Below, one piece after another: positions 33,941 through 61,815 of a DNA stretch of 64,000 bases. A model generated the notes under the pieces. That model did no database searches, was not told where the DNA came from, and saw nothing but the letters and a program-made list of their open reading frames with translations. Source of the stretch: Actinoplanes nipponensis (lineage in GTDB: Bacteria > Actinomycetota > Actinomycetes > Mycobacteriales > Micromonosporaceae); NCBI RefSeq assembly GCF_016862275.1, contig NZ_BOMQ01000070.1, forward strand, positions 1-64,000. Direction: 5' to 3'. Position numbers and translations under genes: made by a program. Numbering within the stretch: the stretch's first letter is position 1; each line of letters begins with the position of its first letter.

Positions 33941-34163
33941 GGCGATCCCTCGGGTTGCCGCTGTGCCGCCCGCGCGGGAGGCAGCACGCGATGACAGGCC
34001 GCCGGTGGCGGCCTCTGACGTCAGCGCGTGCTCGGACGACCGGGCATGCCTCAGCTCCTCGAGGGTTCGGTACCGGCCGACCCTAGCCGCCCCGGCCGCG
34101 GCCCGACAGGGAATTCCGGGTCACCGTCACCGGCCCGCGATGCTCGCCCGCCCGCTGCGGCCG

Positions 34164-35039: not shown

Positions 35040-35086
35040 GGCGGTGAGGATACGACCGGCCCGCCGCTCCGGGAGCGCGAACGCCG

Positions 35087-35914: not shown

Positions 35915-35977
35915 CTCACTGTCCGCCGGCCCGCAGCCGGATAATGCTTTGCGGCCCGCCACGGGGCATCAGGCAGC

Positions 35978-39348: not shown

Positions 39349-39363
39349 CCGGCGCGGCCCGGC

Positions 39364-40734: not shown

Positions 40735-40774
40735 CCTGCATCTGTACCCACCCGCCCGCCGGGCCGCAACCCGG

Positions 40775-41045: not shown

Positions 41046-41484
41046 CCGGTCAGCGTGAACATGGGGGCCTCCGGCCATCGACCAAGTTCGCTTCCTCAGT
41101 CATGCGCCGGTGGGGGTGAGCGGTCCAGCGCCCGAAGGCAGTGGCGGGAAGCGGACAGGCCGTACAGCTCGGAAGCTGGACGCCCTGGTGATGCCGGCGC
41201 GTGGAATCGCGGGTCGCGTCTTGGTTGTTCCGTTCTTGCGCCGGTTACGTGTCCACCGTGGTGGGTTCCGCACCGCGTACGCCGCCGAACAGGCCGGCCA
41301 GGCACCGGAACCTCGGATGACCACTTTCTGCGCCGCCCGGCCGGCGCGGGAGAACCGGCCGGTGCCGGCCACCGAGGCTGGCACGAAGGTGGGATGGAGC
41401 AGCTGCACCACGCCCCTAGGGTTGCCGTATCCGGCGGAGCGGCCGGTCCTCCCGCTAATCTCTTTCGGACACGAGGTTGCTCTG

Positions 41485-42168: not shown

Positions 42169-42184
42169 CGTCTCGTCGAGGAGG

Positions 42185-42460
42185 TCAAGAATGCCCTGGG
42201 CCATAGCGGCCCGGTTCGCGAAGAGTGGACGCAGATCCGGCTGCCCTTCGGCGGCCCGGTGCTCGTAGGGAATCGATGGGATGGCGTGGAAGATCGTCAT
42301 GGCGATGGCGTGTAACGACTCCGGCATGCCCACCCGCCGATGCCACCAACACGATCACGGCTGCGGCCAGATCGTCGTGTGCTTCGCTGAGTTGCCCGGT
42401 CAGGTCGGTGATGAGGGCCTGCGCCCGGGCGAGGTCGCTTCGGAGCCGCTGGTGCAGCAC
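42185..42460 (-). pseudogene. Possible remnant of a coiled-coil, integrase-associated protein
   Basis: About 30 residues (VLHQRLRSDLARAQALITDL then TGQLSEAHDDLAA) form a well-biased amphipathic helix like the C-terminal coiled coils of small proteins encoded beside site-specific recombinases (DUF6262-like). A stop lies just upstream (about 42,490), and the sequence after DDLAA loses coding character. It lies 190 bp from the tRNA-Lys fragment, which suggests debris from an integration event. Low confidence. Confidence 0.3.
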
Positions 42461-42648
42461 AGTGGGTTCATCGACGCGAGTGGGTCACCCCACCGGCACC
42501 CTCGCCCCGGCCGGCCAAAGAAGCCGCCGAAATGATCCCGCGGAGGGCCAGCCGACGGCAGTTCGGTGTCGGGGGTTCCCCCGATGTCTCCCGAACCTCA
42601 GACGAATCTGGGCACCCTCCGAAAATCGGAGAATGCCCAGTTCAACCA

Positions 42649-42703
42649 TGGTGCGCCGCGTAGGACTTGAACCTACAACCCGCGGATTAAGAGTCCGCTG
42701 CTC
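42649..42703 (-). other. tRNA-Lys(CTT) 3' fragment: attachment-site scar of an integrated element
   Basis: On the minus strand bases 42703 to 42649 read as the 3' half of tRNA-Lys: the anticodon arm GCGGA-CTCTTAA-TCCGC with anticodon CTT, a variable loop, the T-arm GTAGGTTCAAGTCCTAC, the 3' acceptor strand GCGGCGC, discriminator A and CCA. The D-arm and 5' acceptor strand are missing; the sequence upstream does not pair. A 3'-end fragment of this length is the typical duplicated attachment core left when an integrase inserts an element into a tRNA gene. The intact copy should lie at the other end of the element, to the right of the window. Confidence 0.75.
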
Positions 42704-42908
42704 CCGGTGTCAACCAATGCTAAGCTGTGCCGCTTCGAACCGGCTTCTACCGCTTTGCGGCGTCATCGGGCCAGGACTTCTGTCGGCTAATGCCAGGCAG
42801 GGGTGATCCACGCCAGGACCGTCGATCACGCATGGATCACGTCAGCCCCGTGGCACGGCGGGCATACCGTCTGCGGGGCCTGGTGGCGCGACTTGTCGAC
42901 GTGGGTTG

Positions 42909-45900
42909 TCAGTAGTGCTCGGAGATGTAAGCGTGGGCGTGATCGAACAGGTCACCGCTGGCTGGCAGGTGATATTTCTGCAGAACCTTGCGGATGGCGA
43001 TCCGGACGAGGCGATCGCCGTTTTTTGTGTGTGACCAGCCGTCGTAGCGCACTTCCTTGACGATGGCGTCGATGTCGACCACGACTCGGCCGATGATGAC
43101 CGGGGTGTTCTTGGGTGCGTACTCGTTGAAGATCTGGGTCAGTGCACCGACGTGCGGGTCCGGGAGTAGGTCGAGGCCATCCCTACCATCTGTGTCTTCG
43201 GCCTGCTCGGCGCTGGTGACGTCTTTGGCCAGGGTGAACAGCTCCCGCAGGTACTCGATCGAGTCACGGGCCTGGGTGAGCACGCGTTCGCGAAGCCTGT
43301 CGAGGCGTTCAGACAAGGTCCGGTAGACCTCGTGGTCGCCGTTGGGGCCAGCGAGCCGGCGGCGGATCCGTTCGGCGATGCTATCGATGACCTCCTCTGC
43401 GGTTTTCGTCGTGACTTTGGTGTCATCAGCTGGGATCAGGCCCTCGTCGATGAGGGTCCGGATGGTGTCGGCGTCGGCGATGACGGCCTGCCGGTCGCTG
43501 CCCCTGACGGTGACCTCCCCGATGTGGGAATGGACCAGGTCGAGGGTTTTCGCGCCGAGCCGGTGCCACAGCAGTTCGTTGGCGGAGTTGGTCGGCATGA
43601 CCGAGGCGTAGACCTGAGACAGGAACCGGTAGTCGGATCGGTGCTCGTCAAGGCGCGCGTCTGGGTAGCACATCTCCCAGATGCCCTGCAACATCTGGAA
43701 GCGGGCGGCGAACCGGTCCCGAGAAGCCGCGTCGGGGATGCGTTGGTGGGCGTCCTGGAGCGTCTGCGAGCCGACGGTAGCGCGGTCGATGCCGGCGAAG
43801 CGGTCGAGGACTTCGGCGATCTCGAAGGTGAACTGGTCAATCAGCCCGTCGAGTTCGATCTTGCGACGGGCTGCCAGCGGGTTGGCCGGGGCCATCGCTC
43901 GGGCGAACCCGTCACCGAGGCCGATGTAGTCGCAGATCAACCCGTAGCGTTTCTCCTGCCCGGTCTGCGGGTTCTTCCAGGGCCGGTTCGCGCGAGTGAT
44001 GGTCTGGAACAGGGTGTGCAGCTTCATCGGCTTGTCGAGGTACATCACCCCCTCGATCGGCGCGTTGAACCCGGTGCCGAGTTTGGAGGTGACGATCAGG
44101 AACTTTAACGGGTCACCGAACGCGCGGAATCTGTCGAGAAGCTTCTCCTCTTCGACCTCCGACAGCGCATGCCTTCTCCATTCCTCGTCGTCCTTGGACT
44201 GCACACTCATCACCACCGCGCACTCGTCCAGCGGGTGCCCGGCATCGTAGCGGCGGGCTAGCAGGCGGTTGATCTCGGCCGCGTACTTCACGCACAGGTC
44301 CCGGTCGACTACCACGATCTGCGCCTTCATACCGAGCGGGTCGATCGTGGCGTAGAAGTGCTCTACGAGGTCAGCACATACCTTCTGGATCCGTTCCTTG
44401 TTTAAAAAGAACGTCGACGTTCTTGACACCTTCTTCGTCAGGAATTCTGCCTCGTCTTCGGCGAGGCCCTCCGCCGCGGCCAGCTCCGCGAACGCCTCGT
44501 CCAAGCGTTCCTTGTCGAGCTGGAACTCGACAAGGCGCGGATTGACATGGATCGGCACCGTCATGCCATCGGCGATGGACCGGTCCGAGTCGTAGGTGTG
44601 CAGCACCTGGCCCGGGTCGTCAGGGTCGCCGTAGAGCGCGAATGTGTTGCGGTCCAGGTCAGCGATCGGGGTGCCGGTGAACCCGAAGAAGCGGGCGTTC
44701 GGCAGCGCCTTGCGCATGTGGTCGCCGAGCTGCTTCTCCTGGGAACGGTGCGCCTCATCGATCAAGACGATGATGTTGTCTCGGTCGTTGAGCACGCCGG
44801 CGTTGGCGAACTTGTGCACCGTGGTGAAGATCAGGCCCCGCTTGTCCCGGTGCCCGAGCAGGTTACGCAGGCCCGCGGCCGTGGTGGGCGTCTCGAGCCT
44901 CGGCATGGACGTGGTGCGGAACTGGTCGTAGGTCTGCCGCACCAGCTGGATCCGGTCGGCGATCAGGATGATCGTAGGGTTCGTTAGCTTGGGGTCAGTG
45001 AGCATCTTCGCAGCGGCGAACACCATCGCCAGGGTCTTGCCGGACCCCTGGGTGTGGTGCACTAGCCCGCGCCGCTTTACACCGTCGCGGGCCCGCTCGG
45101 CGATCAGGTTCACCGACTCATACTGCGGATACCGGGCAACGATCTTCACCAAGTGCGGCTCACCCACCGGATCGGCAGAGGTCTCGTACACAGTGAAGTC
45201 ATGCAGCAGGTCTAGCACCGTCCGCGGCGTCAGCAGCGTCTCCACACACCGCTGCACTCGCTTCCACCCTGACACGGTTGGAGCATCAACAGTCGAGCCC
45301 CACGTCTCCCAGTGATCGATCGAAGCTCCGACCGGGCCGTAGAAGAACTCCCGACCCTCCGAGGCGAACGACAACACATTCGGGACGAAGAACTGCGGCT
45401 GCCGGACCTCATAAACCTCGCTGATCTCCTTCGCGCCCTTGATCCACGAGATCCGCTGGTCGACCGGCGTCTTCACCTCGCCCACCACGAGCGGGAACCC
45501 GTTGACCCACAACACAATGTCGAACCGAGCTCGATTGCCTGGCACCCCGACCGTCACCTCGTCCGATACAACCAGCGTGTTGTTCTTCGGAGTCACGAAG
45601 TCGATCAGCCGGATCGGCACATCGTGGGCGGTGCCGGTGAACTGGTGCGACTGGCGGCCCTTCAGCCATTCCATAAACCCCCGGTTCGCCGCCACCAACC
45701 CATCCTCGGCGGCCGTCAGCGTTAGCATCCGCAGCCGCGCCAGGACCTCGTCAGCCCGCGACGGATCCTCGGCCACTGCCGGGTTCAACCGGACCAACGC
45801 CGACAATACCTCCGACTCGATCAGTGGCTGCTCCTCGGCCCGGTTCAACTGGTCCCCGGGTACGTACGTCCAACTGCCCGCCCGCAACAAGTCCAGGATA

Positions 45901-47205: not shown

Positions 47206-48720
47206 TCACGCATCGAATCCGGCTGCCTTCAACTTTGTTTCCAATGTCATATCCATGGCGGTTAGCTGGTGCCGTGCTTCACGGTAGGCCGCAATGGCAG
47301 CCTCGACATTCGCTTCGGCTCCGGATTCGGTCTTGATGTACCTGCCGACGCTCAGGTCGTAGCCGTTGGCTTGAACTTCAGTGACATCCACGAGGCGCAC
47401 GCTCAGCCCTGCTGCCCCATCGGTGTCCACGCCTTTCTTGTAGGCGGCGTCAATCACCTCAACATCGTGTTCGGACATCGTGTTCTGGTTTCTGCTGGCC
47501 TGATACCTGGCGGAGGCATCAATGAATAGAACTTTGCCTTTGCGATCTTGGGATTTCGCGTTTCGGAAGATGAGTAGGCACACCGGGATTGCCGTGGAGT
47601 AGAACAGGTTACCGGGCAATCCGATCACGGCCTCGAGAAGGTCCTTAGAGATCAGGCATTCGCGGATTGCGGCCTCTTTGCCACCTCGAAAGAGCACCCC
47701 ATGTGACATGACGACGCCGACCCGTCCAGTCTGACCTGCCATGGTGGCGACCATGTGCTGGATCCACGCGTAGTCGCCATTCTTCGCCGGAGGAACACCA
47801 CAGATCACTCGGCTATAGGGGTCTTTCGTCCAGGCCTCCGCTCCCCAATTCTGCAGCGAGAACGGGGGATTTGCGATCACGACGTCGAACTTCCGCAGCG
47901 CGGCGCCATCCAGCAGTTTCGGCTCCCGGAAGGTGTCGCCGCGGACGATCTTGAAGTCGTCCAATCCGTGTAGGTAGAGGTTCATCTTGGCGATGGCCGC
48001 GGTCGTCAGATTTACCTCCTGTCCGTGAAGGCGCAGGGTGCGCGGGTCGCCACCGGCATTACGGACAGCATTAACAGTCTCAACAAGCATCCCGCCAGAG
48101 CCACAAGCTGGGTCCGCTATGGACTCTCCGGGCTGCGGGTCAAGGATCCTGACGAGTAGGTGTACGACGTGACGCGGCGTAAAGAACTCACCGGCCTTTT
48201 TCCCCGATGCCTCGGCGAATTCTCGGAGCAGGTACTCGTAGGCTGCACCGAGCATGTCGCCGCTCACACTGTCGGGATCGAGCCTGACGCTATGAAACGT
48301 GTCGAGCAGGGCAACGAGTGCGGACTCGGGGAGACGGTCTTTGTTCGCCCAGTTCACGTCGCCGAACACGCCAGCGAGTTCCGGGTTGGCCTGCTGGATG
48401 CGCTGCAGGCATGTGGCCAGCTTCGCGCCTACGTTGATGGAAGTCTCGTGGACGTCGTGCCAATGGCAGGCGTCGGGGATCACGAAGGGGTGATAGTCGG
48501 CCTCGATCTCCTCGGTCAGATTCTCGCCGAATTCCTTGACGGCCTGGGCGTGTTGGTAGTCCCAGTTGTCGCTGATCCACTTGAAGAACATGACCGGAAA
48601 CACGTATGCCTTGTAGTCGCCCGGGTCGACGGGACCCCGCAAGGCGTTGGCCGCAGACCAGAGGGCCGACTCCAGCTGACGCTGGGTCATTTGCCCAGAT
48701 CCGGTTAGATGTAGCGCCAT
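47206..48720 (-). CDS. hsdM: Type I restriction-modification DNA methyltransferase subunit
   Basis: The 504-aa N6-adenine methyltransferase has an N-terminal helical HsdM_N domain (RQLESALWSAANALRGPVDP), the SAM-binding motif ADPACGSGGMLVETV and the catalytic NPPF motif (FDVVIANPPFSLQNWG). With HsdS it protects host DNA; with HsdR it forms the restriction complex. ATG 48720 has GAGGGGA 7 bp upstream, so it is preferred over the internal ATG ten codons in. It is the first gene of the hsdMSR operon. Confidence 0.95.
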   Translation of the reverse strand: MALHLTGSGQMTQRQLESALWSAANALRGPVDPGDYKAYVFPVMFFKWISDNWDYQHAQAVKEFGENLTEEIEADYHPFVIPDACHWHDVHETSINVGAKLATCLQRIQQANPELAGVFGDVNWANKDRLPESALVALLDTFHSVRLDPDSVSGDMLGAAYEYLLREFAEASGKKAGEFFTPRHVVHLLVRILDPQPGESIADPACGSGGMLVETVNAVRNAGGDPRTLRLHGQEVNLTTAAIAKMNLYLHGLDDFKIVRGDTFREPKLLDGAALRKFDVVIANPPFSLQNWGAEAWTKDPYSRVICGVPPAKNGDYAWIQHMVATMAGQTGRVGVVMSHGVLFRGGKEAAIRECLISKDLLEAVIGLPGNLFYSTAIPVCLLIFRNAKSQDRKGKVLFIDASARYQASRNQNTMSEHDVEVIDAAYKKGVDTDGAAGLSVRLVDVTEVQANGYDLSVGRYIKTESGAEANVEAAIAAYREARHQLTAMDMTLETKLKAAGFDA

Positions 48721-48916: not shown

Positions 48917-49069
48917 CTAGCAGTGCTTTGTCAGGTTCGGCGAGATGGTTTGCCCCAGTGAAGCGGATCAAGGCCGTGACCTGCGAAAGCAGATTCGAAC
49001 GATCCCTGGGGCGCGATGCTGGCCAGGCACATTTCCCCAGGTCACGGCGATCTGACAAAGCACTGCTAG
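48917..49069. mobile_element. MITE-like element (153 bp) with perfect terminal inverted repeats
   Basis: CTAGCAGTGCTTTGTCAG (48917-48934) is repeated exactly in inverted orientation at 49052-49069. If the outer CTAG on each side is a 4-bp target duplication, the inverted repeat itself is the 14-bp CAGTGCTTTGTCAG. A second inverted pair lies inside (CCGTGACCTG near 48,972; CAGGTCACGG near 49,039). The interior is too short to encode a transposase, so it would be mobilised in trans. It fills most of the 360-bp gap between hsdM and the cupin gene; the rest holds the hsdM leader. Confidence 0.7.
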
Positions 49070-49080
49070 CTGCTTTATTC

Positions 49081-49986
49081 CTAGACGAGATCGAGATCTA
49101 CCTCCACGTCGGCCACGCCTCGTAAGACGTGGGCGAGCTCGTGGGCGTCGAGCGCGCTGAGATGTTGGATGAGCATTTCGCGGGTTTGCTCAACGCGGTT
49201 GGCCAGGGCCTCCGGCGTGAGATCGCTCGGGGGTATGGCATGGCGGAATGCCGGGTCGTTGATGACGGTGGCTGTCAGGTGTTCGGCGATCCAGAGCGGG
49301 GTGCGCTCCTTGATGACGAACGTGAGGTGGACGCTCTCTGTGGCGTCCTTGTTGTAGGGGTTGTGTACCCATCCGCGTGGCAGCACGAGGACGTGGTGAG
49401 GGCTGAGGTGGAACGACATGTCCGGGCCGCTGGCGTTCCACTCTTCTATCCATTGGTCCTGCCACAGCTCAACCGTCGTCAGATGGGCTCGGGTTGGCTG
49501 GGCGATCTTCGGCTTCCAGAGGTCCCAGGTCTTGGTGCCCGCGAGTTGGACGACGATGCTGAGGTATTGGTCCCAGTGGTGTTCGAGCCCTTGTTGGCCT
49601 GCCGGCGTGACGAAGGCGGATACGTAGTTGGTGCAGCCGGTTTGGCGCTGGATTGATTTGGTGACGGTCGCCATGGCGGGAAGCCATCGTTCGAGGTGCC
49701 GCATCTGGACGGTGTGGTCGCGGTCGCGCCACTGCCTCAGTTTGACCGGGTCGAGCCGGTCGGCTGAGGTGAACAGGCGGGGGTGACGCGCGGTGTCGTT
49801 CTTGACGACGTTGACGTCGGTCGGTGGGAAGCAGCCGCTGTCGAGGATGTCGATGACGGTGTTGGCGCTGATCACGCGGGTCAGCGCTCGGCCGTTTGCG
49901 GGAAGCTTCAGCAGTTGAGGCGTGTGTGGCCACGTGTGCATGAACTCTTCGGCGGTCTGCGAGTCGAGCAGTAGTTCGAGCGGCAT
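49081..49986 (-). CDS. JmjC/cupin-4-like Fe(II)/2-oxoglutarate oxygenase, RiPP tailoring candidate
   Basis: The 301-aa cupin-superfamily protein resembles ribosomal-oxygenase-type hydroxylases. The iron facial triad is visible: His137 and Asp139 in LEHHWDQYLSIVVQLAG and His208 in VLPRGWVHNPYN. The GTKTWDLWKP strand after the HxD motif is typical of the fold. A C-terminal helical part (about 235-301) follows. As the last gene of the lanthipeptide cluster, it is a candidate for hydroxylating a side chain of the precursor; that role is inference. It starts at ATG 49986, 77 bp after the helical-repeat gene. Confidence 0.8.
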   Translation of the reverse strand: MPLELLLDSQTAEEFMHTWPHTPQLLKLPANGRALTRVISANTVIDILDSGCFPPTDVNVVKNDTARHPRLFTSADRLDPVKLRQWRDRDHTVQMRHLERWLPAMATVTKSIQRQTGCTNYVSAFVTPAGQQGLEHHWDQYLSIVVQLAGTKTWDLWKPKIAQPTRAHLTTVELWQDQWIEEWNASGPDMSFHLSPHHVLVLPRGWVHNPYNKDATESVHLTFVIKERTPLWIAEHLTATVINDPAFRHAIPPSDLTPEALANRVEQTREMLIQHLSALDAHELAHVLRGVADVEVDLDLV

Positions 49987-50062
49987 CGTTCGTCTCCCGG
50001 GGAAGCTGCCGTACGCGGGTGGGTTGAACTAGCGTCGGAAGGCCGAAACCTGGGATGGCGGT

Positions 50063-51148
50063 TTACACCGGTAGGTGCGCCCGCCTGCGCTTCTGGCACG
50101 CGATGACCGATTCGGCGGTATCGAGGGCGCCGCTGAGGGTGGCGAGGTGAGCCGGGGACATGGTGCCGAGGGCGAGACCGCAGTTGGTGACCAGGTCGGT
50201 GAGTTGGTCGATCTGTCGGCTGGTGGCGATGCCGAGCCGTCCGGGGTGTGCCAGGAGATCGCGGGCGGCGTAGCCGTCGTTCGCGGCGTAGCGGATCAGA
50301 TTCGCGGCGATCTGCTCCCTGGCGGGGTGCTCGCTGTCGAGGGCGTCAATGAGGGTGAGGCTGAGTCGGATGTGGAAGACGGCGAGCCCGGACTCGGCGG
50401 GGCCGAGTGCGCGGTAGGCGGCCAGCGCGGTGGTCACCAGGTCGGCTGGGTCGTCGGTGGGTACGTGAAGGGATAGGCAGGCGGTGACGGCGTTTTCCCA
50501 TGGTTCGCCGGGTTGGGTTGCGCCGAGCATCGCGCGTGCTTGCTGGTGGCGGCCTGCCATGGCGTGAGCAATGACGGTGACTTGGCGGCCGTCGAGCATG
50601 CGCGCGCCGACTCCCTTGTATTCGCGGAGGCGGTGGCTCGCTTCGTCCCATCGGCCGGCGGTGGCGAGTGCGTGGGCACCGGTGCCGAGCAGCACGGTCC
50701 AGAGCCACGTCCGCGCTTTGAGGTGGGCCTCGGGTGTATCAGTGAGGAGGATCGCGGAGACGGTGAGGCCGTCGATCGTGATATCGGTGCGGGTGTCGAT
50801 GGCCTGAAAAAGCTTCTCCAGCAGGGTCCATGCGGCAGGGCCGTCGCCTGCTCGAACGTGGAGGCGCGCGAGGTTGACGATGGGTTCGAGCGCGTGCTGG
50901 GGGTCGCTGTCGTGGGCGAGAGCGACGGCGGCGAGCCGGTGACACCAGGCTCGGGCCAGGTCGGGCAGGCCGCAGTCGGATGCCAGGAGGGCGGCGAGGT
51001 TGAACACGGCGGTCGCTGCCGCCACGTCGCGGCGCTCGTGGGCGAGGTTCGCGCGTCCTTGCAGGTCGGATACGCGCTGGGCGAGGGGCGTGCAGGCAGG
51101 TCGGGGCCGGGCGATCAGCGGGAACCTGCGGGCAACGGTCGGGTTCAT
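50063..51148 (-). CDS. Helical-repeat (TPR-like) protein of the lanthipeptide cluster
   Basis: The 361-aa Ala/Leu-rich protein is predicted almost entirely alpha-helical, with TPR-like pairs (for example RANLAHERRDVAAATAVFNL and IVNLARLHVRAGDGPAAWTL). No catalytic motif is visible. ATG 51148 overlaps the stop of the SpaB_C gene by 4 bp, so the protein is made with the RiPP enzymes. The in-frame reading extending right overlaps that gene and is not used. Similar proteins occur in other actinobacterial RiPP loci; a scaffold or regulatory role is possible. Confidence 0.7.
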   Translation of the reverse strand: MNPTVARRFPLIARPRPACTPLAQRVSDLQGRANLAHERRDVAAATAVFNLAALLASDCGLPDLARAWCHRLAAVALAHDSDPQHALEPIVNLARLHVRAGDGPAAWTLLEKLFQAIDTRTDITIDGLTVSAILLTDTPEAHLKARTWLWTVLLGTGAHALATAGRWDEASHRLREYKGVGARMLDGRQVTVIAHAMAGRHQQARAMLGATQPGEPWENAVTACLSLHVPTDDPADLVTTALAAYRALGPAESGLAVFHIRLSLTLIDALDSEHPAREQIAANLIRYAANDGYAARDLLAHPGRLGIATSRQIDQLTDLVTNCGLALGTMSPAHLATLSGALDTAESVIACQKRRRAHLPV

Positions 51149-51963
51149 GAGGCACCGCCTGGTATGAGTGCGCCGAGCGTGGGGTCGGGGCCGAAGACGA
51201 CGGTCTTGGCAGCAGCGGCGAGGGCCGCCTGCTGTAATCCGGGAATGCTGCGTCGGTTCCACGCGAAGATCACATGGTGGGCGAGCGTGGCTCGTAGGCC
51301 GCGGTGCAACTGGCCGGTCTGGTTGAGGTGCCGGAGCGTGTCACCGGCGGACGTGTAAGCGTCGATCAAGGTCTGGTAGCCGGCCAGCGGCGCTTGCTGG
51401 CGAGTGAGATCGTCCATGTCGACGGTGAGGAGCCTTCTCGCCGCGTTCAGCAGAGCAGCGACAGAGCCGGGCTGCGGCGGGTCTCGGTGGTCGGCGACGC
51501 GTGCCCACACGTCGCCTTGCTCATACCAGTCGAGGGCCGCTGCGCGCATCATCACCGCAGCGAGCATGATCGACGTCTCGCGGTGGCGGGCGGGCTCGCG
51601 GTCGCTGCTGCCGGTCAGGAGGTGCTGGCTGTCGGCATGCCACAGCTGGTGGGCGGCGTCCATGGCTGCGGGGCCGCCGAAGGCACAGGTCTCGGGCTCG
51701 TAGATGCCGGGGACGGCCCCGCAGATGCTGCGGTCGTGGATGAGCCGTTCCAGTTCGCCGGTCAGGTAGCGGTCGGCGTCGATCGTGGCAGCGGGGAGGT
51801 AGCGCAACCGCCAGTCGCCTTTGCGTACGTAGAACCAGGTGGTGATGAGCTGGCGGGCTTGGGCTTCGGCCAGGATCGGCGCGAGATGGGTGCTGGCTGC
51901 CTGCTCTGCGGTGTGGGGGTCAGGGAAGGCGATCGTGACCTGTCGCCATTCGGGTGCCGTCAT
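51145..51963 (-). CDS. Stand-alone SpaB_C / thiopeptide-type bacteriocin biosynthesis protein
   Basis: The 272-aa protein is homologous to the C-terminal elimination domain of LanB dehydratases. It has the N-terminal strand WRQVTIAFPDPHTAEQAA, TWFYVRKGDWRLRYLPA (equivalent to the LanB FLRHADPEPHLRLRI segment) and the IYEPETCAFGGPAAMDAAHQLWHADS motif typical of this family. In split dehydratases such a protein eliminates glutamate from glutamylated Ser/Thr. Here the main LanB already carries its own copy, so this is an additional, possibly divergent, enzyme. It begins 16 bp after the lanC stop. Confidence 0.85.
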   Translation of the reverse strand: MTAPEWRQVTIAFPDPHTAEQAASTHLAPILAEAQARQLITTWFYVRKGDWRLRYLPAATIDADRYLTGELERLIHDRSICGAVPGIYEPETCAFGGPAAMDAAHQLWHADSQHLLTGSSDREPARHRETSIMLAAVMMRAAALDWYEQGDVWARVADHRDPPQPGSVAALLNAARRLLTVDMDDLTRQQAPLAGYQTLIDAYTSAGDTLRHLNQTGQLHRGLRATLAHHVIFAWNRRSIPGLQQAALAAAAKTVVFGPDPTLGALIPGGAS

Positions 51964-51979
51964 CAGCGTGTTCCCCGGC

Positions 51980-53203
51980 TCAGCTGAGGGCGAGGAAGGT
52001 GTCCCAGCCGGTGGCTGAGGTGCCGGTGGCGGCGGTGTGCAGGGCGAGCGCGGCTCCAGCCGTGCCGTCCATCAACTCGGGGTTGTGGAAGGCGTCGGCG
52101 GAGAGCTGATGGGTGAGGTCGGCGGTCAGGGCAGGCAGTTGAGCGGTGAGCTGGGCCGAGCGGTGCGGGTCGGTGCTGGTGGTGGCCATGCGGCAGGCGG
52201 CCTGGAGGAGCCCGGCTTTGCCGTGGCAGAGGCCGATCTCGGGGAGTCGGTCGCGTTGGGTGGTGTCTTGGAGTACGGCGAGCATCGCGTTCTCCGCGTG
52301 CTGCTGGCGGGTGGTGTCGCGTTGGGCGAGTCCGGCGAGTTGCTGGGCGCGGGCGATGCCGGGGGTGCCGTAGCACCAGGAGGGCCGGTGGCGTTTCGGG
52401 TCGGTGCCGGGGGTGACGTATCCCGGCCACCAGATTCCGGTGGGGTCGTCGTAGCGGTGGAGGTCGGTCCAGCGGCACAGTTCGGCGAGGGCGTTGCGGG
52501 CTGTGGGGGTGTCGTGGCCGTGGAGGATGGCGTGGGCCAGCAGGGCGATGACGGCGCTGATGCCGTGGGCGGCGCCGATGTTGCCGTGACCGTGCGGAAA
52601 GTCGGGGTCGGGTGTACCGGCGAGCCCGGAGGGCAGCCACCACGGCGGTCTGCTGATGCTGCCGTTGAGGGGTTCGGTGATACGAGCGAGGTAGCCGACC
52701 AGGTCGTGGCTGATGGGATGGTCGGGTTGAGCGTGCAGGTGGTAGAGGCCGAGACCGGTGAGGCCGTGGACGAGGTCGAACTCGTACATGGTCAGTGGTT
52801 CGCGGCGGTCGATGCGGGCGTGGGCGGCGGCGAGGCGTTGGCGGGTGAGGGTGATCGTGGCGGTGTTGAGGCTGGCGTAGGCGCGGCGGTAGCCGCCGAG
52901 CGGGTGGGCGATGTGCAGCATGAACGCCAGGGCGGGGGCGCCGTGGAACGGGTCGGAGTTGGCTCCGATACTGACCGGCTCGCTGGCGGCGGCGCGGATC
53001 CAGCGGTGGGCGGTGCCTTCGTCGCCGTGTCCGGAGACGGCCCGTTCGATGTGCAGCAGGGCGATGCCGACCGCGCCACCGGCCAGCGATTGCGGCCGGG
53101 TTCGGCCGTCGGGTGACGGGCCGACGGTGGCGGGGTCGGCGAGCCTGACAGAGGCCGCGGTGAGCACGTCGAGGGGGTTGGCGGCGGTCGTTGTGGTTCT
53201 CAT
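51980..53203 (-). CDS. Lanthionine synthetase C-family cyclase
   Basis: The 407-aa LanC catalyses Michael addition of Cys thiols to dehydroalanine/dehydrobutyrine to close (methyl)lanthionine rings. Zinc ligands are present: Cys277 in SWCYGTPG and Cys326-His327 in GLCHGKAG. The catalytic His is probably His213 in GAAHGISAVIALL, and Asp143 lies in EFDLVHGLTGLG. The fold is the alpha/alpha-toroid with Gly-rich repeats. ATG 53203 overlaps the lanB stop by 4 bp. All key residues are intact. Confidence 0.93.
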   Translation of the reverse strand: MRTTTTAANPLDVLTAASVRLADPATVGPSPDGRTRPQSLAGGAVGIALLHIERAVSGHGDEGTAHRWIRAAASEPVSIGANSDPFHGAPALAFMLHIAHPLGGYRRAYASLNTATITLTRQRLAAAHARIDRREPLTMYEFDLVHGLTGLGLYHLHAQPDHPISHDLVGYLARITEPLNGSISRPPWWLPSGLAGTPDPDFPHGHGNIGAAHGISAVIALLAHAILHGHDTPTARNALAELCRWTDLHRYDDPTGIWWPGYVTPGTDPKRHRPSWCYGTPGIARAQQLAGLAQRDTTRQQHAENAMLAVLQDTTQRDRLPEIGLCHGKAGLLQAACRMATTSTDPHRSAQLTAQLPALTADLTHQLSADAFHNPELMDGTAGAALALHTAATGTSATGWDTFLALS

Positions 53204-56200
53204 GGGGTGCTCCTTGTCGTCCAGCTCAGCGCGGCGGCGCGGGCGAGGTGGAGGCAGGCTCGTTCGCTGTCGAGGTCGAGTCCGGCGACGCGGACGTGGT
53301 GCAGGTGGAGCAGATCGGGCAGCAGCTCGACCGGCGGGACAGCGCTAACGGCGGGTAGGTGGTCGCGCCAGGCGGTCAGGGTGCGGTGGCGCTCGGCCCA
53401 GCGGTCCATCAGGTTCTCGCCTCCGGGTAGGGACGCCACGGCGGAGCGGTCGTGCGGGTTGGCCAGGCGGATCGCCTGGTCGTAGACGGACCGTGGGGGT
53501 GCGGGCCGGTGCGCGCGGGTCCGGGCGATCAGCCATCGCAGGGCATCGGTCGGGTCGCCAATGGCCGCCGTGACGATGTCGACCATGCTCGCGGCGGTCA
53601 ACGCCTGCCAGCCGGAGGCGGGACGTCGCCCGGTGACGGCCAACTGCGCGAGGACGGCTGCGGAGTCCGCCTCGAACACGGCTGTGGTCGCCTGATAGGC
53701 GGCCGGGCTGCCGAAGCGGCCGGGCTCACCGAAGTCGGTGTCCCATTGGACTCGGCGGGTCAGGTCGGCCTCGGCCAGCTCTCGCGTCCAGCCGGTGACG
53801 GCTTCTGTGGGTAGGCCGCTGATCCGTAGCCGCAGGTGCGGTTCGGGGTCGGCGTGGCGCAGGAACCACCACCTGCCCGCGCCCGGGTAGCCGGCCAGGA
53901 GCCGGGGTAGGTGGGTGTTCAGGATGGTGGTCTGGTCCTCGGGTCGGGCGTAGATCTTCAGGTAGTGGTGGTCGCTGCCGGGCAGGACGCCATGGGCGCG
54001 GACACTCACCGGAGGGCTGACGAGCCGGGGTGCTGGTGGTCGCGGGGTGGTGGCGATCAACGGGATGACGATCTCGTGCCGGTGCCCGCCGATCCAGGCG
54101 TCGCCGTCGGGGATGACGCGCAGCAGGGCGGTGGGGCTGCGGGTCAGGTGGTCGCGCAGCAGTGCCCGGTGGGCGGGTTCGTGGAGGTCAAGGCCGATGG
54201 TCTGATCGCCGACTCCGAGCGCGACGGTGGCGGGGCAGCCGGCCGCGTCGAGCCAGGCGGTGAGGGCGATGTCCCATCGCTGCCAGGCGGCGGTCCGGTC
54301 GGGCAGGTCGGCGGCGGTCAGGAGCCACCGTGCCGGGCTCAGGAGGGTCCGGCCGTACCGCAGCGCGGGCAGGAACGGCAAAGTTTTGGCTGCTGGTCCC
54401 CACTCCACCGGCGAGCAACGGGTAGCCAGGGCTACGGGTGCCTCGGCGAGGAAGCGGGTGAGCGGGTGGGCGTGACGTACCGGCTCGACCGTGTTGACCG
54501 CGACCGGTTGAAGTGCCCGCTGGCGGGAGATCGACACCAGGTACAGGCGGTGCCCGTCGGCGGTCACCGCAATGTCGTCCACGCCGATCGTGTCCGGTGA
54601 CGGGGCGTGGTACTCGCCGACCGGGATCAGATACGGCAGGACTCGGGCAGCGCGGTTGACATCCAGGGTGATGGTGTAGCGGGTGACCGCAGACAGTTGA
54701 GCCAGCAACGCTCCGGCGCTGGCTGGTGGGCTGTCGGTCGTGCGGGTGGCCACTTGGTGCCGGGTGGTGTCGCCGAGCATGTCCAGGAACCTGCCCGTGG
54801 TCGAGAACGCTTGCTGCGATGCCCGCACGATCGACAGGTGGAAGTCGCCATTGGTGATGGCCTGGAGCGAGTCGGCGTGGACGCGCACGGTGAGTTCGGC
54901 GGTCGGCAGGATCTCGGTCGGTGCCGCGCCGGCCAGGTCCTCCAAGAGGGCGTCGTCGAGGATCACCTCGTGTTCATGGCGCAGGGCGGCGCGTTGCGCC
55001 AGGGCGAGCAACCGCTGGTCCCGATCGGTGAGGGCGGACGCCGTATCGGTGGGTTCGCCGGTGAAGCCGTGCGGGTAGCCGAGACCCACCTGGGCATCGA
55101 TCACGTCCAGGACCGGGACGAGGGCGTGCAAGCCGTACCGGTCCAAGAACCGTGCATGCCAGTCGCGCCACCCGGCCGACGTCGACCGGGCGAGGCGGGT
55201 CAGTGCGGCGGCGGCTCGGCTCGCCTCCGCCGTCACCGTCGTCGGTACCACGAGGTCACAGTCCAGCCGCAGGTCGATCCCGACCGCGTGGCCGGGGCGC
55301 ATCAGGGCGACGGCCTCGCGAAGGTCCCGTAGGTGCGCGCCGGCCGTTGCCTCGTCCGGTGCACGATGGTGTCCCATCTTGAGATCACGAACTTGACGTA
55401 GCTGATCAAGTAGATCGGCAACGTCGCCGCCGTCGGCTGCGGCGGCCTCCACCTGGTCCACGACGTGCGTCAGGGGGTCGGTCTCGGTCGAGGGTGGGCG
55501 CAGGCTGGTCAAGAGCAGACGCTGCGCCACCATCTGGCCGATCAACCGCTCGACGCCCTCTCGCGGCGCCGTGCCGTCGGCGGTCAGCTTGCCGATCAGA
55601 TCGGCCCACCGGATCGGTGCAGCCGCCGCCGCCAGAGCAGCACGGATCACGTCGTTGGCCTTGATCCGCAGATGGGTCGGCGCGCCCTGGGGGTCGCTCG
55701 TGGCAGCGCGGTACTCCAGCACCACCTTGCCTGCTCGTTGCACCAGGAGGTTGTTCGCGCACACCGTCAGATGCGGGCGGAGCCGGACGTCGGACTCCAG
55801 AGCGTCGAGGATCGCGGCAAGCCAGGATGCCTGCAGGCGCGCGACAGGCCGGTGCGCGGCGCCCCACCGGACCCGGCCGCGACGGCTCGCCGTGGCAGGG
55901 GCGACACCCGCGAACAAGCCGTACGGGGTGGCCCGGGTGGTGGCGCGCAGCAGGTAGCGCATGACCGCGAGCACCACTCGCCGAGCATCAGTGTGTGACA
56001 AGGTGCCGCTGATGGCGGCGGTGGCCCGCTCGGCAAGGTCCGGGGAGGCATGGGCCAAGGCCGCCGCGAATCCGGGAATCCCCAACGTCTCGGTCAGCCA
56101 CGACCGCCAACCGGCCGTCGGGTCGCTGCCGGTCAGGTCGGGCCATCCGCCGAGCTGGTCGGGGCGCAGTACGGCTGCTCTGAGCATTAAGGCGTCGTTG

Positions 56201-56214
56201 ACGCTGCGATACAT
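53200..56214 (-). CDS. Class I lanthipeptide dehydratase (LanB)
   Basis: The 1004-aa enzyme has an N-terminal glutamylation domain (about 1-690; MRYLLRATTRATPYGLFAGV, LLVQRAGKVVLEYR, RYTITLDVNRAARVLPYL). A C-terminal SpaB_C elimination domain follows (about 715-1000; HGVLPGSDHHYLKIYA, RWWFLRHADPEPHLRLRISG). Using glutamyl-tRNA it activates and dehydrates Ser/Thr of the precursor. ATG 56214 is chosen because GGGGAGG lies 6 bp upstream; the longer in-frame reading to 56295 lies in the intergenic stem-loop. It follows the precursor gene by 170 bp and overlaps lanC by 4 bp. Confidence 0.93.
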   Translation of the reverse strand: MYRSVNDALMLRAAVLRPDQLGGWPDLTGSDPTAGWRSWLTETLGIPGFAAALAHASPDLAERATAAISGTLSHTDARRVVLAVMRYLLRATTRATPYGLFAGVAPATASRRGRVRWGAAHRPVARLQASWLAAILDALESDVRLRPHLTVCANNLLVQRAGKVVLEYRAATSDPQGAPTHLRIKANDVIRAALAAAAAPIRWADLIGKLTADGTAPREGVERLIGQMVAQRLLLTSLRPPSTETDPLTHVVDQVEAAAADGGDVADLLDQLRQVRDLKMGHHRAPDEATAGAHLRDLREAVALMRPGHAVGIDLRLDCDLVVPTTVTAEASRAAAALTRLARSTSAGWRDWHARFLDRYGLHALVPVLDVIDAQVGLGYPHGFTGEPTDTASALTDRDQRLLALAQRAALRHEHEVILDDALLEDLAGAAPTEILPTAELTVRVHADSLQAITNGDFHLSIVRASQQAFSTTGRFLDMLGDTTRHQVATRTTDSPPASAGALLAQLSAVTRYTITLDVNRAARVLPYLIPVGEYHAPSPDTIGVDDIAVTADGHRLYLVSISRQRALQPVAVNTVEPVRHAHPLTRFLAEAPVALATRCSPVEWGPAAKTLPFLPALRYGRTLLSPARWLLTAADLPDRTAAWQRWDIALTAWLDAAGCPATVALGVGDQTIGLDLHEPAHRALLRDHLTRSPTALLRVIPDGDAWIGGHRHEIVIPLIATTPRPPAPRLVSPPVSVRAHGVLPGSDHHYLKIYARPEDQTTILNTHLPRLLAGYPGAGRWWFLRHADPEPHLRLRISGLPTEAVTGWTRELAEADLTRRVQWDTDFGEPGRFGSPAAYQATTAVFEADSAAVLAQLAVTGRRPASGWQALTAASMVDIVTAAIGDPTDALRWLIARTRAHRPAPPRSVYDQAIRLANPHDRSAVASLPGGENLMDRWAERHRTLTAWRDHLPAVSAVPPVELLPDLLHLHHVRVAGLDLDSERACLHLARAAALSWTTRSTP

Positions 56215-56258
56215 GGCGACCTCCCCAGGACGTGATCCGCTGGCAGCGGGTGGGGAAC

Positions 56259-56293
56259 GCCCGGCCCCGCGAGAATCTCTCCCGGGGCCGGGC
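56259..56293 (-). terminator. Stem-loop between precursor and lanB (partial terminator/attenuator)
   Basis: GCCCGGCCCCG (56259-56269) pairs perfectly with CGGGGCCGGGC (56283-56293). An inner GAGA/TCTC pair extends the stem and there is no U-tract. Its place between precursor and dehydratase matches hairpins that lower enzyme expression relative to the precursor, or stabilise the precursor message, in many lantibiotic operons. Confidence 0.6.
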
Positions 56294-56384
56294 ACTCCTG
56301 ACTCTGATGTCGATGGCTCGCTCTACGACCTGGCCTTGTGGACCGGGCTGGCCAACTGAGCGGGCCATCGACGGATGTGACAGG

Positions 56385-56537
56385 TCAGCAACTGGTGCAG
56401 GCCGACGCGCAGGTGCTGCCGCAGTTGTCCTCGGTCATCTTGATGATGTGCTCGACGGTGCCGCCGGCCTCGATGAACTCGATGTCGAGGTCGAAGTCGT
56501 CGGCGGTGTCGGGCAGGGCTGTGGCGAGTTGGGACAT
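56385..56537 (-). CDS. FxLD-family lanthipeptide precursor peptide
   Basis: The 50-aa precursor has an acidic leader containing the family-defining FDLD motif (residues 15-18, in TADDFDLDIEFIEAGGTVEH). It is followed by IIKMTEDN and the Cys/Ser/Thr-rich end CGSTCASACTSC. Cys39, 43, 47 and 50, together with Ser41, Thr42, Ser45, Thr48 and Ser49 (and Thr35), allow up to four (methyl)lanthionine rings. ATG 56537 has GGAGG 6 bp upstream; the in-frame ATG at 56588 lacks one. It sits between the FxLD methyltransferase and lanB. The leader cleavage site and ring pattern cannot be read from sequence. Confidence 0.9.
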   Translation of the reverse strand: MSQLATALPDTADDFDLDIEFIEAGGTVEHIIKMTEDNCGSTCASACTSC

Positions 56538-56615
56538 GACAACCTCCCTGGTAGGGGTGATGCAGACTTCCCCGGCGCTGCTCGGCATGGGCCGCTGAGG
56601 TGAGCGCCGAAGCTT

Positions 56616-57824
56616 CTAGGACCAGGCGACGGCGAGGACGCCGTGTCGCTTGGTGGTGTGCCACCCGGTCAGGCTGCTGGAGTCGGCGGTGTTCGGGCGG
56701 TACGCGATGTCGGCCGCGTTGCGCCGGTAGTAGCCGCCCGCCCACGCGCGGATCATGGCCAGTAGCTCGCCGCCGACCTGCTCGGCTTCCGGCCCGTGCG
56801 CGACGACGCCTGTTTCGTAGCCGCTGACGGTGTCCGGATTCTCGCGCTTGATGCGGTAGGCGATGGTGCCACCGCGCACCAGAGCCGGGGTGCCGTTACG
56901 CACCGTCCTGTCGACCACGCCCTGATCGACGGCGGCCTGCGCGGCGTGCACCATCGGCAGTTCCGGACCGTTGGTCAGCAGGTACAGCTCCAACTCGTCG
57001 GGCATGTCGAACGGCGTTCCCGACCAGCTCTCCACCGGTTTGGTGTTGAGCGCCTTCCGCAACGCCGGCACGTCGAAGGTGAGGGTGCTGTTCTGATCGA
57101 CACGCAGCCCGACATCGGGGGTGACGGCGATCAGCTTCTCGGTGGCCGCGCCGTCGCCCTGCATCGGTACGAACGAGCCGAGCCGATAGTTGCTGGCCGT
57201 CAGGGTCGGACTGCCAGCGATCCGGTCGAACGCGATGAGCCGGGTGATCGCGGCGAAGCGCAGCGGCACGACGATCCGGCCGTCCGGGGTGAGCTGATCG
57301 AGCCAGGCGGGCGGGATGTCCCACGCCCCGACAGTGACGATGATCCGGTCGTACGGCGCGTGTTGCGCCACGCCGTTGTCCGCGTCGGCGAGCACGACGT
57401 TGACGTGCTCGTACCCGGCCCTGGCCAGACCCGCGCGGGCACGGTCGACGACGTCGGCATCGATGTCCACCGTCGTCACCGAGCCAGTACGCCCGACGAT
57501 CTCCGAGATCAGTGCGGCGTTATATCCGCCGGACCCGATCTCCAGCACGTTCATCCCCGGCCGCACGTCGGCCTGTTCGAGCTGAATGGCCTGGATGTGA
57601 GAGGCCGAGACCACACTGGTCTGCCGCCCTTCGGCATCGATCTTAGGCACCAGCGTGGTGTTGGTTTGATACACCTTCTCCAGTGGCTCGCCAGGGGCGA
57701 AGTCATGCCGGGGCACCGCGTTCATCGCCGCAGCGACGATGTCGGTGGTGATGAGACCCTCGTCGCGCAGGGCGGTCACCATCGCCTCACGCAAGGTCGC
57801 GGCGTCGTCAACCTGTGATGTCAT
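56616..57824 (-). CDS. FxLD-system protein-L-isoaspartate O-methyltransferase-like enzyme
   Basis: The 402-aa SAM-dependent methyltransferase has an N-terminal PCMT-like domain. Pre-motif residues are SQTSVVSASHIQAIQLEQ-like (about 68-84), motif I is VLEIGSGGYNAAL (94-106), and VTTVDIDADVVDRA and the YDRIIVTVGAWDIP segment follow. About 180 residues of extra C-terminal domain come after it. PCMT homologues in lanthipeptide clusters (OlvSA type) methylate an Asp carboxylate so that it cyclises to succinimide and rearranges to isoaspartate. The extended version is the 'FxLD system' form and is diagnostic for the neighbouring precursor family. ATG 57824 follows AGAGGGA; a longer reading to 57995 lacks similarity. 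Confidence 0.88.
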   Translation of the reverse strand: MTSQVDDAATLREAMVTALRDEGLITTDIVAAAMNAVPRHDFAPGEPLEKVYQTNTTLVPKIDAEGRQTSVVSASHIQAIQLEQADVRPGMNVLEIGSGGYNAALISEIVGRTGSVTTVDIDADVVDRARAGLARAGYEHVNVVLADADNGVAQHAPYDRIIVTVGAWDIPPAWLDQLTPDGRIVVPLRFAAITRLIAFDRIAGSPTLTASNYRLGSFVPMQGDGAATEKLIAVTPDVGLRVDQNSTLTFDVPALRKALNTKPVESWSGTPFDMPDELELYLLTNGPELPMVHAAQAAVDQGVVDRTVRNGTPALVRGGTIAYRIKRENPDTVSGYETGVVAHGPEAEQVGGELLAMIRAWAGGYYRRNAADIAYRPNTADSSSLTGWHTTKRHGVLAVAWS

Positions 57825-60643: not shown

Positions 60644-61000
60644 TCAGGCCCCTGGGTCGGTGGCGAGGGTGCTGGTCACGGGATGTGGTGGCATGGTCAG
60701 CGTGTGGACGCCGAGGTGTTGGCCAGCGCAGTCGTGAATCTGTGTCAACATCCCGGCGTCGGCGAGCCTGGTCACCGCTTGCCGGAGCTCGGCTGGGTCC
60801 AGTCCGACGGCCAGGAGCAATCGGTGCACCGTGTACGGGTCGAGTTCGGCGGTCACGGTGCCGGGTCGCCGGGCCGAGGTTGCGAGATAATCGGCCACCT
60901 GGCGGAGCTGGCTGTCGGGGAAGCGCTGATGCACACGCGCCCGCCAGATCGCGGCGAAGGCATCGCCCTCGCCCCCAGCCCCGCCAGCGGTGTCGATCAT
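60644..61000 (-). CDS. Hypothetical protein (118 aa), possibly winged-helix
   Basis: The 118-aa product has a helical core (FAAIWRARVHQRFPDSQLRQ, PYTVHRLLLAVGLDPAELRQ and AVTRLADAGMLTQIHD). The helix pattern with a final beta-hairpin-like end is reminiscent of a small winged-helix domain, but I do not recognise a family. ATG 61000 overlaps the stop of the upstream methyltransferase by 4 bp. Downstream is a 184-bp gap with no gene that I can support. Confidence 0.6.
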   Translation of the reverse strand: MIDTAGGAGGEGDAFAAIWRARVHQRFPDSQLRQVADYLATSARRPGTVTAELDPYTVHRLLLAVGLDPAELRQAVTRLADAGMLTQIHDCAGQHLGVHTLTMPPHPVTSTLATDPGA

Positions 61001-61815
61001 GGTTTCTTCGCCACCCCGCAGAACACATCCACCACGGCCGGGACACCAGCTACAGGGTCCGGGTCCGGTCGCCACAGGCTGCTGGAGACCACGCCGGGCT
61101 CGACGAGGTCCAGGCCCTGGAAGAAGCCGGCTATCTCGTCGGGATGGCGGGCGATGTACGGGGTGCCCGCCGCGATCGAGACGCGGGTGGCCTCGTTGCG
61201 GGCCTCAGGGCTGATGACGTTGGTACCGTCGTTGATCACGACATAGCTGCCCGACGGTAGGGCGGACACGAGTCGGTTGAGAATCGACTTGGCCTCGTTG
61301 TAGTCCTCGACGTTGCCCAGGATCCCGAGCATCATCAGCCCAATCGGCTCGCCGAAGTCGAGGATCCTCTCTGCCTTGCGCAAGATGGTGTCCGGGTCGT
61401 GGACGTCGGCGTGGAGGTAGTCGGTGACGCCCTCCGGTGAGCTGGTCAGCAACGCCCGTGCGTGCGCCAACACCAACGGATCGTTGTCGACATAGACGAT
61501 CCGCGCGTGCGGGTTGATCCGCTGGGCGACCTGGTGGGTGTTGTCAGCGGTCGGCAGGCCCGTACCGATGTCCAGAAACTGCTTGATCCCCACCTCGCCC
61601 GCCAGGTACCGCACGGCGCGGGTGAGGAACCCTCGCGACTGCCGAGCAATATCGACGATGTCGGGGAAGAACTGCACGATCTGGTCGCCGAGTGCCCGGT
61701 CGGCGGGGAAGTTGTCCTTGCCGCCGAGCCAGTAGTTCCACACCCGAGCCGAATGCGGCACCGACGTATTGAGCGACGCAGAAGGCCACTCGCCGCCCGG
61801 AGGGTAGCCAGTCAT
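60997..61815 (-). CDS. SAM-dependent methyltransferase, DUF574/Methyltransf_19 type
   Basis: The 272-aa canonical member of the family has the N-terminal signature SARVWNYWLGGKDNFPADRALG, motif I VGIKQFLDIGTGLPTADNTH, the ribose-binding RIVYVDNDPLVLAHARALL, and FGEPIGLMMLGILGNVED. Family members are numerous in Streptomyces and relatives, sometimes next to regulators or natural-product genes; substrates are unknown. It is linked by 4-bp overlaps to the small gene upstream and the 118-aa gene downstream. Confidence 0.88.
   Translation of the reverse strand: MTGYPPGGEWPSASLNTSVPHSARVWNYWLGGKDNFPADRALGDQIVQFFPDIVDIARQSRGFLTRAVRYLAGEVGIKQFLDIGTGLPTADNTHQVAQRINPHARIVYVDNDPLVLAHARALLTSSPEGVTDYLHADVHDPDTILRKAERILDFGEPIGLMMLGILGNVEDYNEAKSILNRLVSALPSGSYVVINDGTNVISPEARNEATRVSIAAGTPYIARHPDEIAGFFQGLDLVEPGVVSSSLWRPDPDPVAGVPAVVDVFCGVAKKP

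What the first reader, a model, noticed from the sequence alone, without database searches (positions are those of the whole stretch)
49081..57824. FxLD-type class I lanthipeptide cluster with unusual tailoring set
The precursor with an FDLD leader and the extended PCMT-like methyltransferase identify the FxLD family. Around them are full LanB, LanC, a second SpaB_C protein, a helical-repeat protein and a JmjC-like cupin. A product combining lanthionine rings with isoaspartate formation and possibly hydroxylation would be structurally new for this strain. No exporter, protease or regulator is present, so the product may stay intracellular or use outside genes.
Basis: partly seen in the sequence, partly recalled or inferred. 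Interest (0 to 1): 0.8.

Follow-up and report, generated by a model that had tools for sequence, protein, structure and literature searches.

The report
Lanthipeptide cluster with borrowed oxygenase
This stretch of an Actinoplanes-type genome holds a standard, well-known kind of gene set for making a ring-shaped modified peptide, plus one rare extra gene for an oxygen-adding enzyme that seems to have been taken over from an unrelated two-gene system and probably decorates the peptide.

Summary
The minus strand of 49081-57824 encodes an FxLD methyltransferase, a 50-residue FDLD precursor, full LanB, LanC, a standalone SpaB_C-type protein, a TPR-fold protein and a JmjC oxygenase; both curated FxLD models score well above cut-off. 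Most of the 'unusual tailoring set' is ordinary: among 42 other FxLD loci fetched, SpaB_C is in 39 and the TPR protein in 28. LanB glutamylation residues are intact, and isoaspartate formation is published for this family.

The rare part is JmjC: intact in 1 of those 42 loci, truncated in another. It keeps its iron triad and folds like ribosomal-protein hydroxylases. Its clade's relatives mostly sit beside an 'HWHG' protein, for which the three FxLD-JmjC genomes gave no match. Over five linked pairs its divergence tracks that of the TPR protein (r = 0.92). I infer that it hydroxylates the peptide; the target residue is unknown. The standalone SpaB_C lacks two elimination-site residues in 21 of 21 copies compared, so it is probably not a second lyase. 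Novelty: new variant of a known kind.

The parts
56616..57824 (-). FxLD-system methyltransferase (LanSA/PIMT type with C-terminal extension), 402 aa; presumed to modify the core Asp
   Evidence: TIGR04364 467 bits (cut-off 320), PF01135; nearest solved structures are protein-isoaspartate methyltransferases, best 1DL5; Ser73 conserved in 24 of 25 rows
56385..56537 (-). FxLD precursor peptide, 50 aa; leader motif FDLD (15-18), H30, core T35-E-D37-N38-C39, Cys 39/43/47/50
   Evidence: TIGR04363 55 bits (cut-off 30); GGAGG before the ATG at 56537
56215..56384 (-). precursor-LanB gap with a strong GC hairpin, possible attenuator or processing site
   Evidence: -91.7 kcal/mol against a mean of -69.8 for shuffles, z -5.6
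53200..56214 (-). full-length LanB dehydratase (glutamylation and elimination domains), 1004 aa
   Evidence: PF04738 and PF14028; R12, R90, R94, D314, R475 (NisB R14, R83, R87, D299, R464 by alignment) in 23 of 23 rows; elimination site: R833 and R975 in 22 of 23 (1 gap), H970 in 20 of 23, E830 in only 14 of 23
51980..53203 (-). LanC cyclase, 407 aa
   Evidence: PF05147; C277, C326, H327 in 22 of 22 rows; ATGA overlap with LanB
51145..51963 (-). standalone SpaB_C / thiopeptide-type protein with a divergent active site
   Evidence: TIGR03891 161 bits; R826-equivalent is Ala in 21 of 21 distinct copies and H961-equivalent Ile/Leu in 21 of 21, while 27 positions of its own are invariant
50063..51148 (-). 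TPR-fold solenoid protein, 361 aa, frequent FxLD-cluster member
   Evidence: ATGA overlap with the SpaB_C gene; 46 invariant positions in 47 sequences; AlphaFold2 pLDDT 92.4; best PDB rows include TPR proteins such as LGN, NprR and Rap
49081..49986 (-). JmjC Fe(II)/2-oxoglutarate oxygenase, 301 aa, the rare accessory gene
60997..61815 (-). PF04672 SAM methyltransferase, recurrent upstream neighbour, role in the pathway unproven
   Evidence: same-strand neighbour in the window and 8 genus loci; PF04672 345 bits

Best explanation
This is a class I FxLD lanthipeptide operon carrying an additional, recruited JmjC hydroxylase. LanB binds the FDLD leader and dehydrates core Ser/Thr; LanC closes thioether rings on the four Cys, probably including a T35-C39 ring that contains D37. 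The PIMT-type methyltransferase then methylates D37, giving an aspartimide and mostly isoaspartate. The standalone SpaB_C protein has a different, strictly conserved active site and is more likely a separate enzyme or substrate-handling subunit than a second elimination domain; the TPR protein probably binds peptide or holds enzymes together. The JmjC protein adds a hydroxyl to one side chain (candidates H30, D37, N38). Shown here: gene content, intact catalytic residues, predicted folds, matched divergence of JmjC and the cluster, and the tree pattern behind recruitment. Inferred: every reaction, their order, the direction of recruitment, and the hydroxylation target.
For: FxLD models above cut-off. 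LanB and LanC catalytic residues conserved. Same core gene order in nearly all other FxLD loci examined. JmjC: Fe triad 75 of 75, high-confidence model closest to protein-side-chain hydroxylases, codon-position divergence from A. couchii 23/13/41% like LanB's 22/15/40%, one 12-row clade with 100/99 support. Three further sources appear to carry both proteins on one contig (same source and same longest-contig length: P0004/P0149, P0005/P0134, P0013/P0180). JmjC and TPR identities correlate over five linked pairs, r = 0.92, reached only by the true pairing among 120 label orders. No HWHG match in G000, G065 or G084, while the 3 other genomes of the same search gave one. Precedents: OlvSA makes isoAsp (PMC13001092, section read); JmjC BipG hydroxylates a RiPP precursor (PMC12707348, section read).
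Against: No chemistry can be shown here. No core residue tracks JmjC presence: JmjC-less L178 and L176 have almost the same core. JmjC is truncated in G084 although the rest of the operon is 88.5% identical at DNA level, so it is dispensable. In the TPR tree JmjC-linked rows are interspersed with JmjC-less ones. JmjC is separated by 76 nt and not translationally coupled. Linkage in three of the five pairs rests on equal contig lengths.
Confidence: 0.68

Rival explanations
1. Ordinary FxLD cluster; the JmjC gene is only a neighbour or passenger and the product is the usual lanthionine plus isoAsp peptide.
For: Absent from 40 of 42 other FxLD loci and truncated in 1; JmjC-less clusters with nearly the same core exist (L176, L178); 76-nt gap before the gene.
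Against: Same position and strand in A. couchii; five linked pairs with matched divergence; codon-position pattern of a constrained gene.
Confidence: 0.2
2. JmjC belongs to the strain's biology but acts on a host protein (ribosomal protein or an HWHG-like partner), not on the lanthipeptide.
For: Closest folds are ribosomal-protein hydroxylases; relatives have an HWHG protein close upstream in 51 of 64 loci.
Against: No HWHG match in the three genomes concerned; 17 positions fixed in the 12-row clade and rare in HWHG-linked copies (10 of the 12 rows have no directly seen context); matched divergence with the TPR protein of the operon.
Confidence: 0.1
3. The standalone SpaB_C protein is a working second glutamate-elimination or [4+2] domain that defines an unusual product.
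For: TIGR03891/PF14028 match; PMC7268733 raises a different modification as a possibility; Glu (E91) and Arg (R237) of the site are kept in 21 of 21.
Against: R826- and H961-equivalents lost in 21 of 21 distinct copies while the LanB beside it keeps its own elimination domain. Its [4+2] residues were not tested.
Confidence: 0.15

Closest known systems
FxLD / LanSA class I lanthipeptides (OlvA-OlvSA of Streptomyces olivaceus; families I 1-4 of PMC7268733; 'lanthimiditides')
   Same: FxLD leader, LanB, LanC, PIMT-type methyltransferase with C-terminal extension, conserved core Asp in TxDxC; a standalone elimination-like domain is reported in other class I clusters
   Different: D-N instead of the commoner D-G (15 of 43 best precursor hits here have N, 28 have G); extra JmjC gene
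FxLD cluster of Actinoplanes couchii (L031/L125)
   Same: same seven genes in the same order; precursor identical from FIEAGG to the C-terminus
   Different: 66-81% protein identity gene by gene
BipG/BpmG/PbsQ JmjC-type or cupin-like hydroxylases of biphenomycin-like RiPPs (PMC12707348, PMC12257519)
   Same: JmjC-type protein in a RiPP cluster; +16 Da on the precursor is reported there
   Different: BipG acts on Orn in a non-lanthionine peptide; no Arg in the present core; sequence kinship not tested
RRE-JmjC proteins and their bacterial homologues in RiPP-like contexts (PMC12710340, passages seen)
   Same: PF08007 domain linked to RiPPs
   Different: no RRE domain looked for in the present protein; those homologues were not compared
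HWHG-JmjC two-gene cassettes of actinomycetes (seen here)
   Same: JmjC of the same family, 36-54% identity to the window protein
   Different: no LanB match within the fetched flanks; partner is a ~150-aa HWHGYGPWxG protein
NO66 / MINA53 / YxbC / YcfD hydroxylases
   Different: 12-21% identity; different genomic setting; the annotated substrates are ribosomal proteins, for YxbC none is given

Membership tests
FxLD family lanthipeptide (TIGR04363/TIGR04364) | precursor above curated cut-off | tested here: met
   55.4 bits, cut-off 30
FxLD family lanthipeptide (TIGR04363/TIGR04364) | FxLD-system methyltransferase above curated cut-off | tested here: met
   467 bits, cut-off 320
Class I lanthipeptide | full LanB with glutamylation residues (which residues matter is recalled) | tested here: met
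   five positions conserved in 23 of 23; D121-equivalent is Gln here and variable
Class I lanthipeptide | LanC with zinc ligands | tested here: met
   C277, C326, H327 in 22 of 22
Class I lanthipeptide | thioether rings in the product | not testable with these tools
   needs mass spectrometry or NMR
Lanthimiditide / isoAsp lanthipeptide | PIMT homologue plus conserved core Asp | tested here: met
Lanthimiditide / isoAsp lanthipeptide | aspartimide or isoAsp formed | not testable with these tools
   biochemistry
JmjC 2-oxoglutarate oxygenase | HxD...H iron triad and JmjC fold | tested here: met
   75 of 75 rows
JmjC 2-oxoglutarate oxygenase | hydroxylase activity | not testable with these tools
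   biochemistry
LanB elimination domain (standalone SpaB_C) | R826 and H961 of the elimination site (key residues recalled) | tested here: not met
   Ala in 21 of 21 and Ile/Leu in 21 of 21 distinct copies
Thiopeptide [4+2] enzyme | pyridine-forming activity and its residues | not tested
   only the broad TIGR03891 match
TPR protein | TPR-type helical solenoid | tested here: met

The most novel reading that the evidence does not exclude
A JmjC oxygenase of a family otherwise mostly paired with HWHG proteins was captured by an FxLD lanthipeptide lineage, works there without that partner, and now hydroxylates the lanthipeptide (for example His30, in keeping with the His-hydroxylase-like fold, or the D37-N38 aspartimide site), making a class I lanthipeptide with thioether rings, an isoaspartate and a JmjC-installed hydroxyl group.
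Probability: 0.5. Interest if true: 0.6.

Novelty: new variant of a known kind. Interest (0 to 1): 0.45.

Why it matters
PIMT-type methyltransferases are reported as the commonest auxiliary enzymes of class I lanthipeptide clusters (PMC13001092), yet PMC7268733 states that the mature product of the studied member is unknown. A naturally hydroxylated variant with a nearly unchanged core would give a clean with-and-without comparison of what the added group does. The conserved, non-canonical active site of the standalone SpaB_C protein turns the open question of its role into a testable one. The JmjC lineage suggests how a protein hydroxylase can move between unrelated gene settings.

Tried and rejected
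JmjC as a general mark of FxLD clusters: rejected (intact in 1 of 42 other loci; in L139 the contig ends about 1 kb after the TPR gene, so a JmjC gene there could have been missed). JmjC target linked to the D-N core: rejected, D-N cores occur without JmjC (L129, L130, L140, L144, L165-L170, L175, L178, L180). The helical protein as an oddity: rejected (28 of 42 loci). G299 JmjC near FxLD: about 15 kb apart and on the other strand, judged unrelated. The 153-bp nested inverted repeat as a MITE: not supported, single copy. Consensus promoter and terminator scan: 0 promoters, 2 terminator-like sites, no more than in shuffles; the TPR-JmjC gap has no special fold. No PDB relative of the TPR or SpaB_C protein by sequence. 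No BipG sequence was compared.

Rows left out: the JmjC tree drops 4 of 64 loci (L090, L092, L093, L094; scores under 190) and uses 14 of the 120 listed protein hits; alignment A1 holds 52 of 126 homologues plus the window, A2 holds 46 of the 120 listed (1266 found). L141 (overlaps L140) and L164 (cut by the region edge) are left out of the 42; the SpaB_C count was first 22 rows with L141 as a partial duplicate of L140 and was redone without it.

Literature: ten searches (open-access PMC only, supplements not readable) showed me no paper on a JmjC gene in a class I lanthipeptide cluster. That is not proof of absence. The only papers with both words were PMC12710340 (JmjC homologues in RiPP-like contexts) and PMC12707348. 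One 2015 survey is not held, and the JACS 2019 (OlvSA) and JACS 2025 (2-oxoglutarate macrocyclisation) papers were seen only as references or described in other papers.
Full report
What is there. The minus strand of 49081-57824 holds seven genes: methyltransferase, precursor, LanB, LanC, standalone SpaB_C protein, TPR-fold protein, JmjC protein. Curated models agree: TIGR04364 467 bits (cut-off 320), TIGR04363 55 bits (cut-off 30), TIGR03891 161 bits for the standalone protein, PF04738/PF14028 for LanB, PF05147 for LanC, PF08007 for JmjC. The precursor, from the start with the best ribosome-binding site, is 50 residues: FDLD at 15-18, H30, T35-E36-D37-N38-C39, and Cys at 39, 43, 47 and 50. LanB/LanC and SpaB_C/TPR overlap by ATGA; JmjC starts 76 nt after the TPR gene. 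A very stable hairpin lies between precursor and LanB (z -5.6).

Catalytic residues. Against NisB (printed alignment; which NisB residues matter is recalled), the glutamylation positions R14, R83, R87, D299 and R464 are conserved in 23 of 23 aligned LanB rows (window plus 22 genus loci); D121 is not (Gln here, variable in the set). In the elimination domain, R826 and R966 are kept in 22 of 23 (one row has a gap there), H961 in 20 of 23, but E823 in only 14, R784 in 15 and R786 in 14 of 23. LanC zinc ligands are kept in 22 of 22.

The standalone SpaB_C protein. I aligned it with the LanB C-terminal domains of the same genus loci (22 LanB rows; 21 distinct SpaB_C copies after removing one partial duplicate). 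It has Ala in place of R826 in 21 of 21 and Ile/Leu in place of H961 in 21 of 21. Its own set of 27 positions is invariant in 21 of 21, among them R47, K48, W51, R54, Y88, E91, A94, G96-G97, H105, D111-S112, R128-E129, E148, R160, R221, R224, F233, N236 and R237. So it is constrained, but not as an elimination domain. Loci of other genera were not included in this comparison. PMC7268733 (one section and passages read) reports full LanB plus such a protein in other class I clusters and suggests another modification.

How common the set is. TIGR04363 precursors occur above cut-off in 21 of 67 genus genomes, the window's own included, and in 124 of 354 family genomes. I fetched 23 other genus loci and 19 loci from other genera of the family. 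With models built here from the genus loci, genus counts are methyltransferase 23, LanB 22, LanC 21, SpaB_C 20, TPR 18 and intact JmjC 1 of 23; for the others 19, 19, 19, 19, 10 and 0 of 19. The 19 were picked for high precursor scores and spread over genera, so they are not a random sample. An amino-acid-permease gene (PF13520; two examples scanned) recurs upstream in 10 of 22 LanB-anchored genus loci, a PF04672 methyltransferase in 8 of them and the window, an acetamidase in 4 and the window. PF04672 is generally abundant in actinomycetes (recalled), so that neighbour is weak evidence.

The JmjC gene. There are 126 homologues at E <= 1e-3. A scan of 84,980 species genomes for two exact peptide patterns gave 66 loci. 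Among these, only L031 (Actinoplanes couchii) has LanB, LanC and the other operon genes next to it (L050, L085 and L092 have only weak methyltransferase matches, and some flanks are short). In 51 of 64 loci examined (L031-L094) an HWHG protein lies within about 2.6 kb upstream, mostly directly upstream. In G084, whose operon is 88.5% identical at DNA level, JmjC is cut after about 60 matching codons, with a tRNA-Lys and a phage-type integrase following.

Is JmjC part of the pathway? For: the two FxLD-linked copies with seen context fall in one clade of 12 rows (100/99); it lies in a 34-row group (100/99) with HWHG-linked and other copies, but the fork that joins it to its nearest HWHG-linked kin is weak (80/95) and the root is only the midpoint, so the direction of recruitment is inferred. 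Ten of the 12 rows come without context; shared source and longest-contig length link three of them to TPR homologues. Over the five JmjC-TPR pairs identities correlate, r = 0.92, and none of the other 119 label orders reaches it. Codon-position divergence equals that of LanB. No HWHG match came from the three FxLD-JmjC genomes, while the three other genomes of the same call gave one (one of them is the query's own source). Against: in the TPR tree all five linked rows and the truncated one lie in a 68-row subclade (99/92), but two JmjC-less clusters (L176, L178) lie inside it too and 60 rows there have no known context; the tree forces five changes for the linked rows. So the gene has been lost, or gained, more than once, and the core hardly changes with it.

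Known or new. The isoAsp/aspartimide chemistry and the cluster type are known (PMC13001092 section 7 and passages; PMC7268733; PMC10787088 passages). JmjC-type hydroxylation in RiPPs is known from biphenomycin-like peptides (PMC12707348 section 9 and passages; PMC12257519 passages), and JmjC homologues in RiPP-like contexts are mentioned in PMC12710340 (passages). I found no paper on the combination in a class I lanthipeptide in the searches listed under Tried and rejected. I file it as a new variant of a known kind.

Noticed in passing
L032:8001-8453 and 50 further loci among L031-L094, upstream of JmjC: Two-gene cassette: a ~137-177-aa protein with N-terminal HWHGYGPWxG and C-terminal CCPN..HP..PCPLPP motifs followed by a JmjC oxygenase. 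No Pfam or NCBIfam match for the two examples scanned. Possibly a protein hydroxylase with its substrate.
   Followed up: partly
genome G000, contig C60 about 32600-45000 (L140, L141): Second FxLD cluster in the same genome (precursor ending FTLDVTLVDAGPAASGFSTNTDDNCGSGNTGSNACTTKNN, methyltransferase, LanB, LanC, SpaB_C), followed by ABC and MFS transporter genes and further methyltransferases.
   Followed up: partly
L124:16447-18929 (G084): JmjC gene truncated, followed by tRNA-Lys and a phage-type integrase on the other strand.
   Followed up: partly
window 48917-49069: Nested perfect and near-perfect inverted repeats (18 and 16 nt arms) just downstream of JmjC; single copy in the genome.
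   Followed up: partly
window 47206-48720; L031:12169-17488: Type I restriction-modification HsdM-type gene (PF02384 333 bits) downstream of JmjC in the window; in A. couchii genes that look HsdM/HsdR-like by eye also follow JmjC (not scanned).
   Followed up: no
L139, L145, L181: SpaB_C and methyltransferase matches lie on one open frame, in agreement with fusions reported in PMC7268733.
   Followed up: no
L178, L137: Two tandem FxLD-type methyltransferase frames beside the precursor or a LanB match.
   Followed up: no
L060, L061, L069, L071, L072, L075, L077, L079, L080, L091: A JmjC subclade of Micromonosporaceae in which the HWHG motif scan found nothing; 11 JmjC loci share a kinase-like gene about 1.5 kb downstream (identity by eye only).
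   Followed up: no
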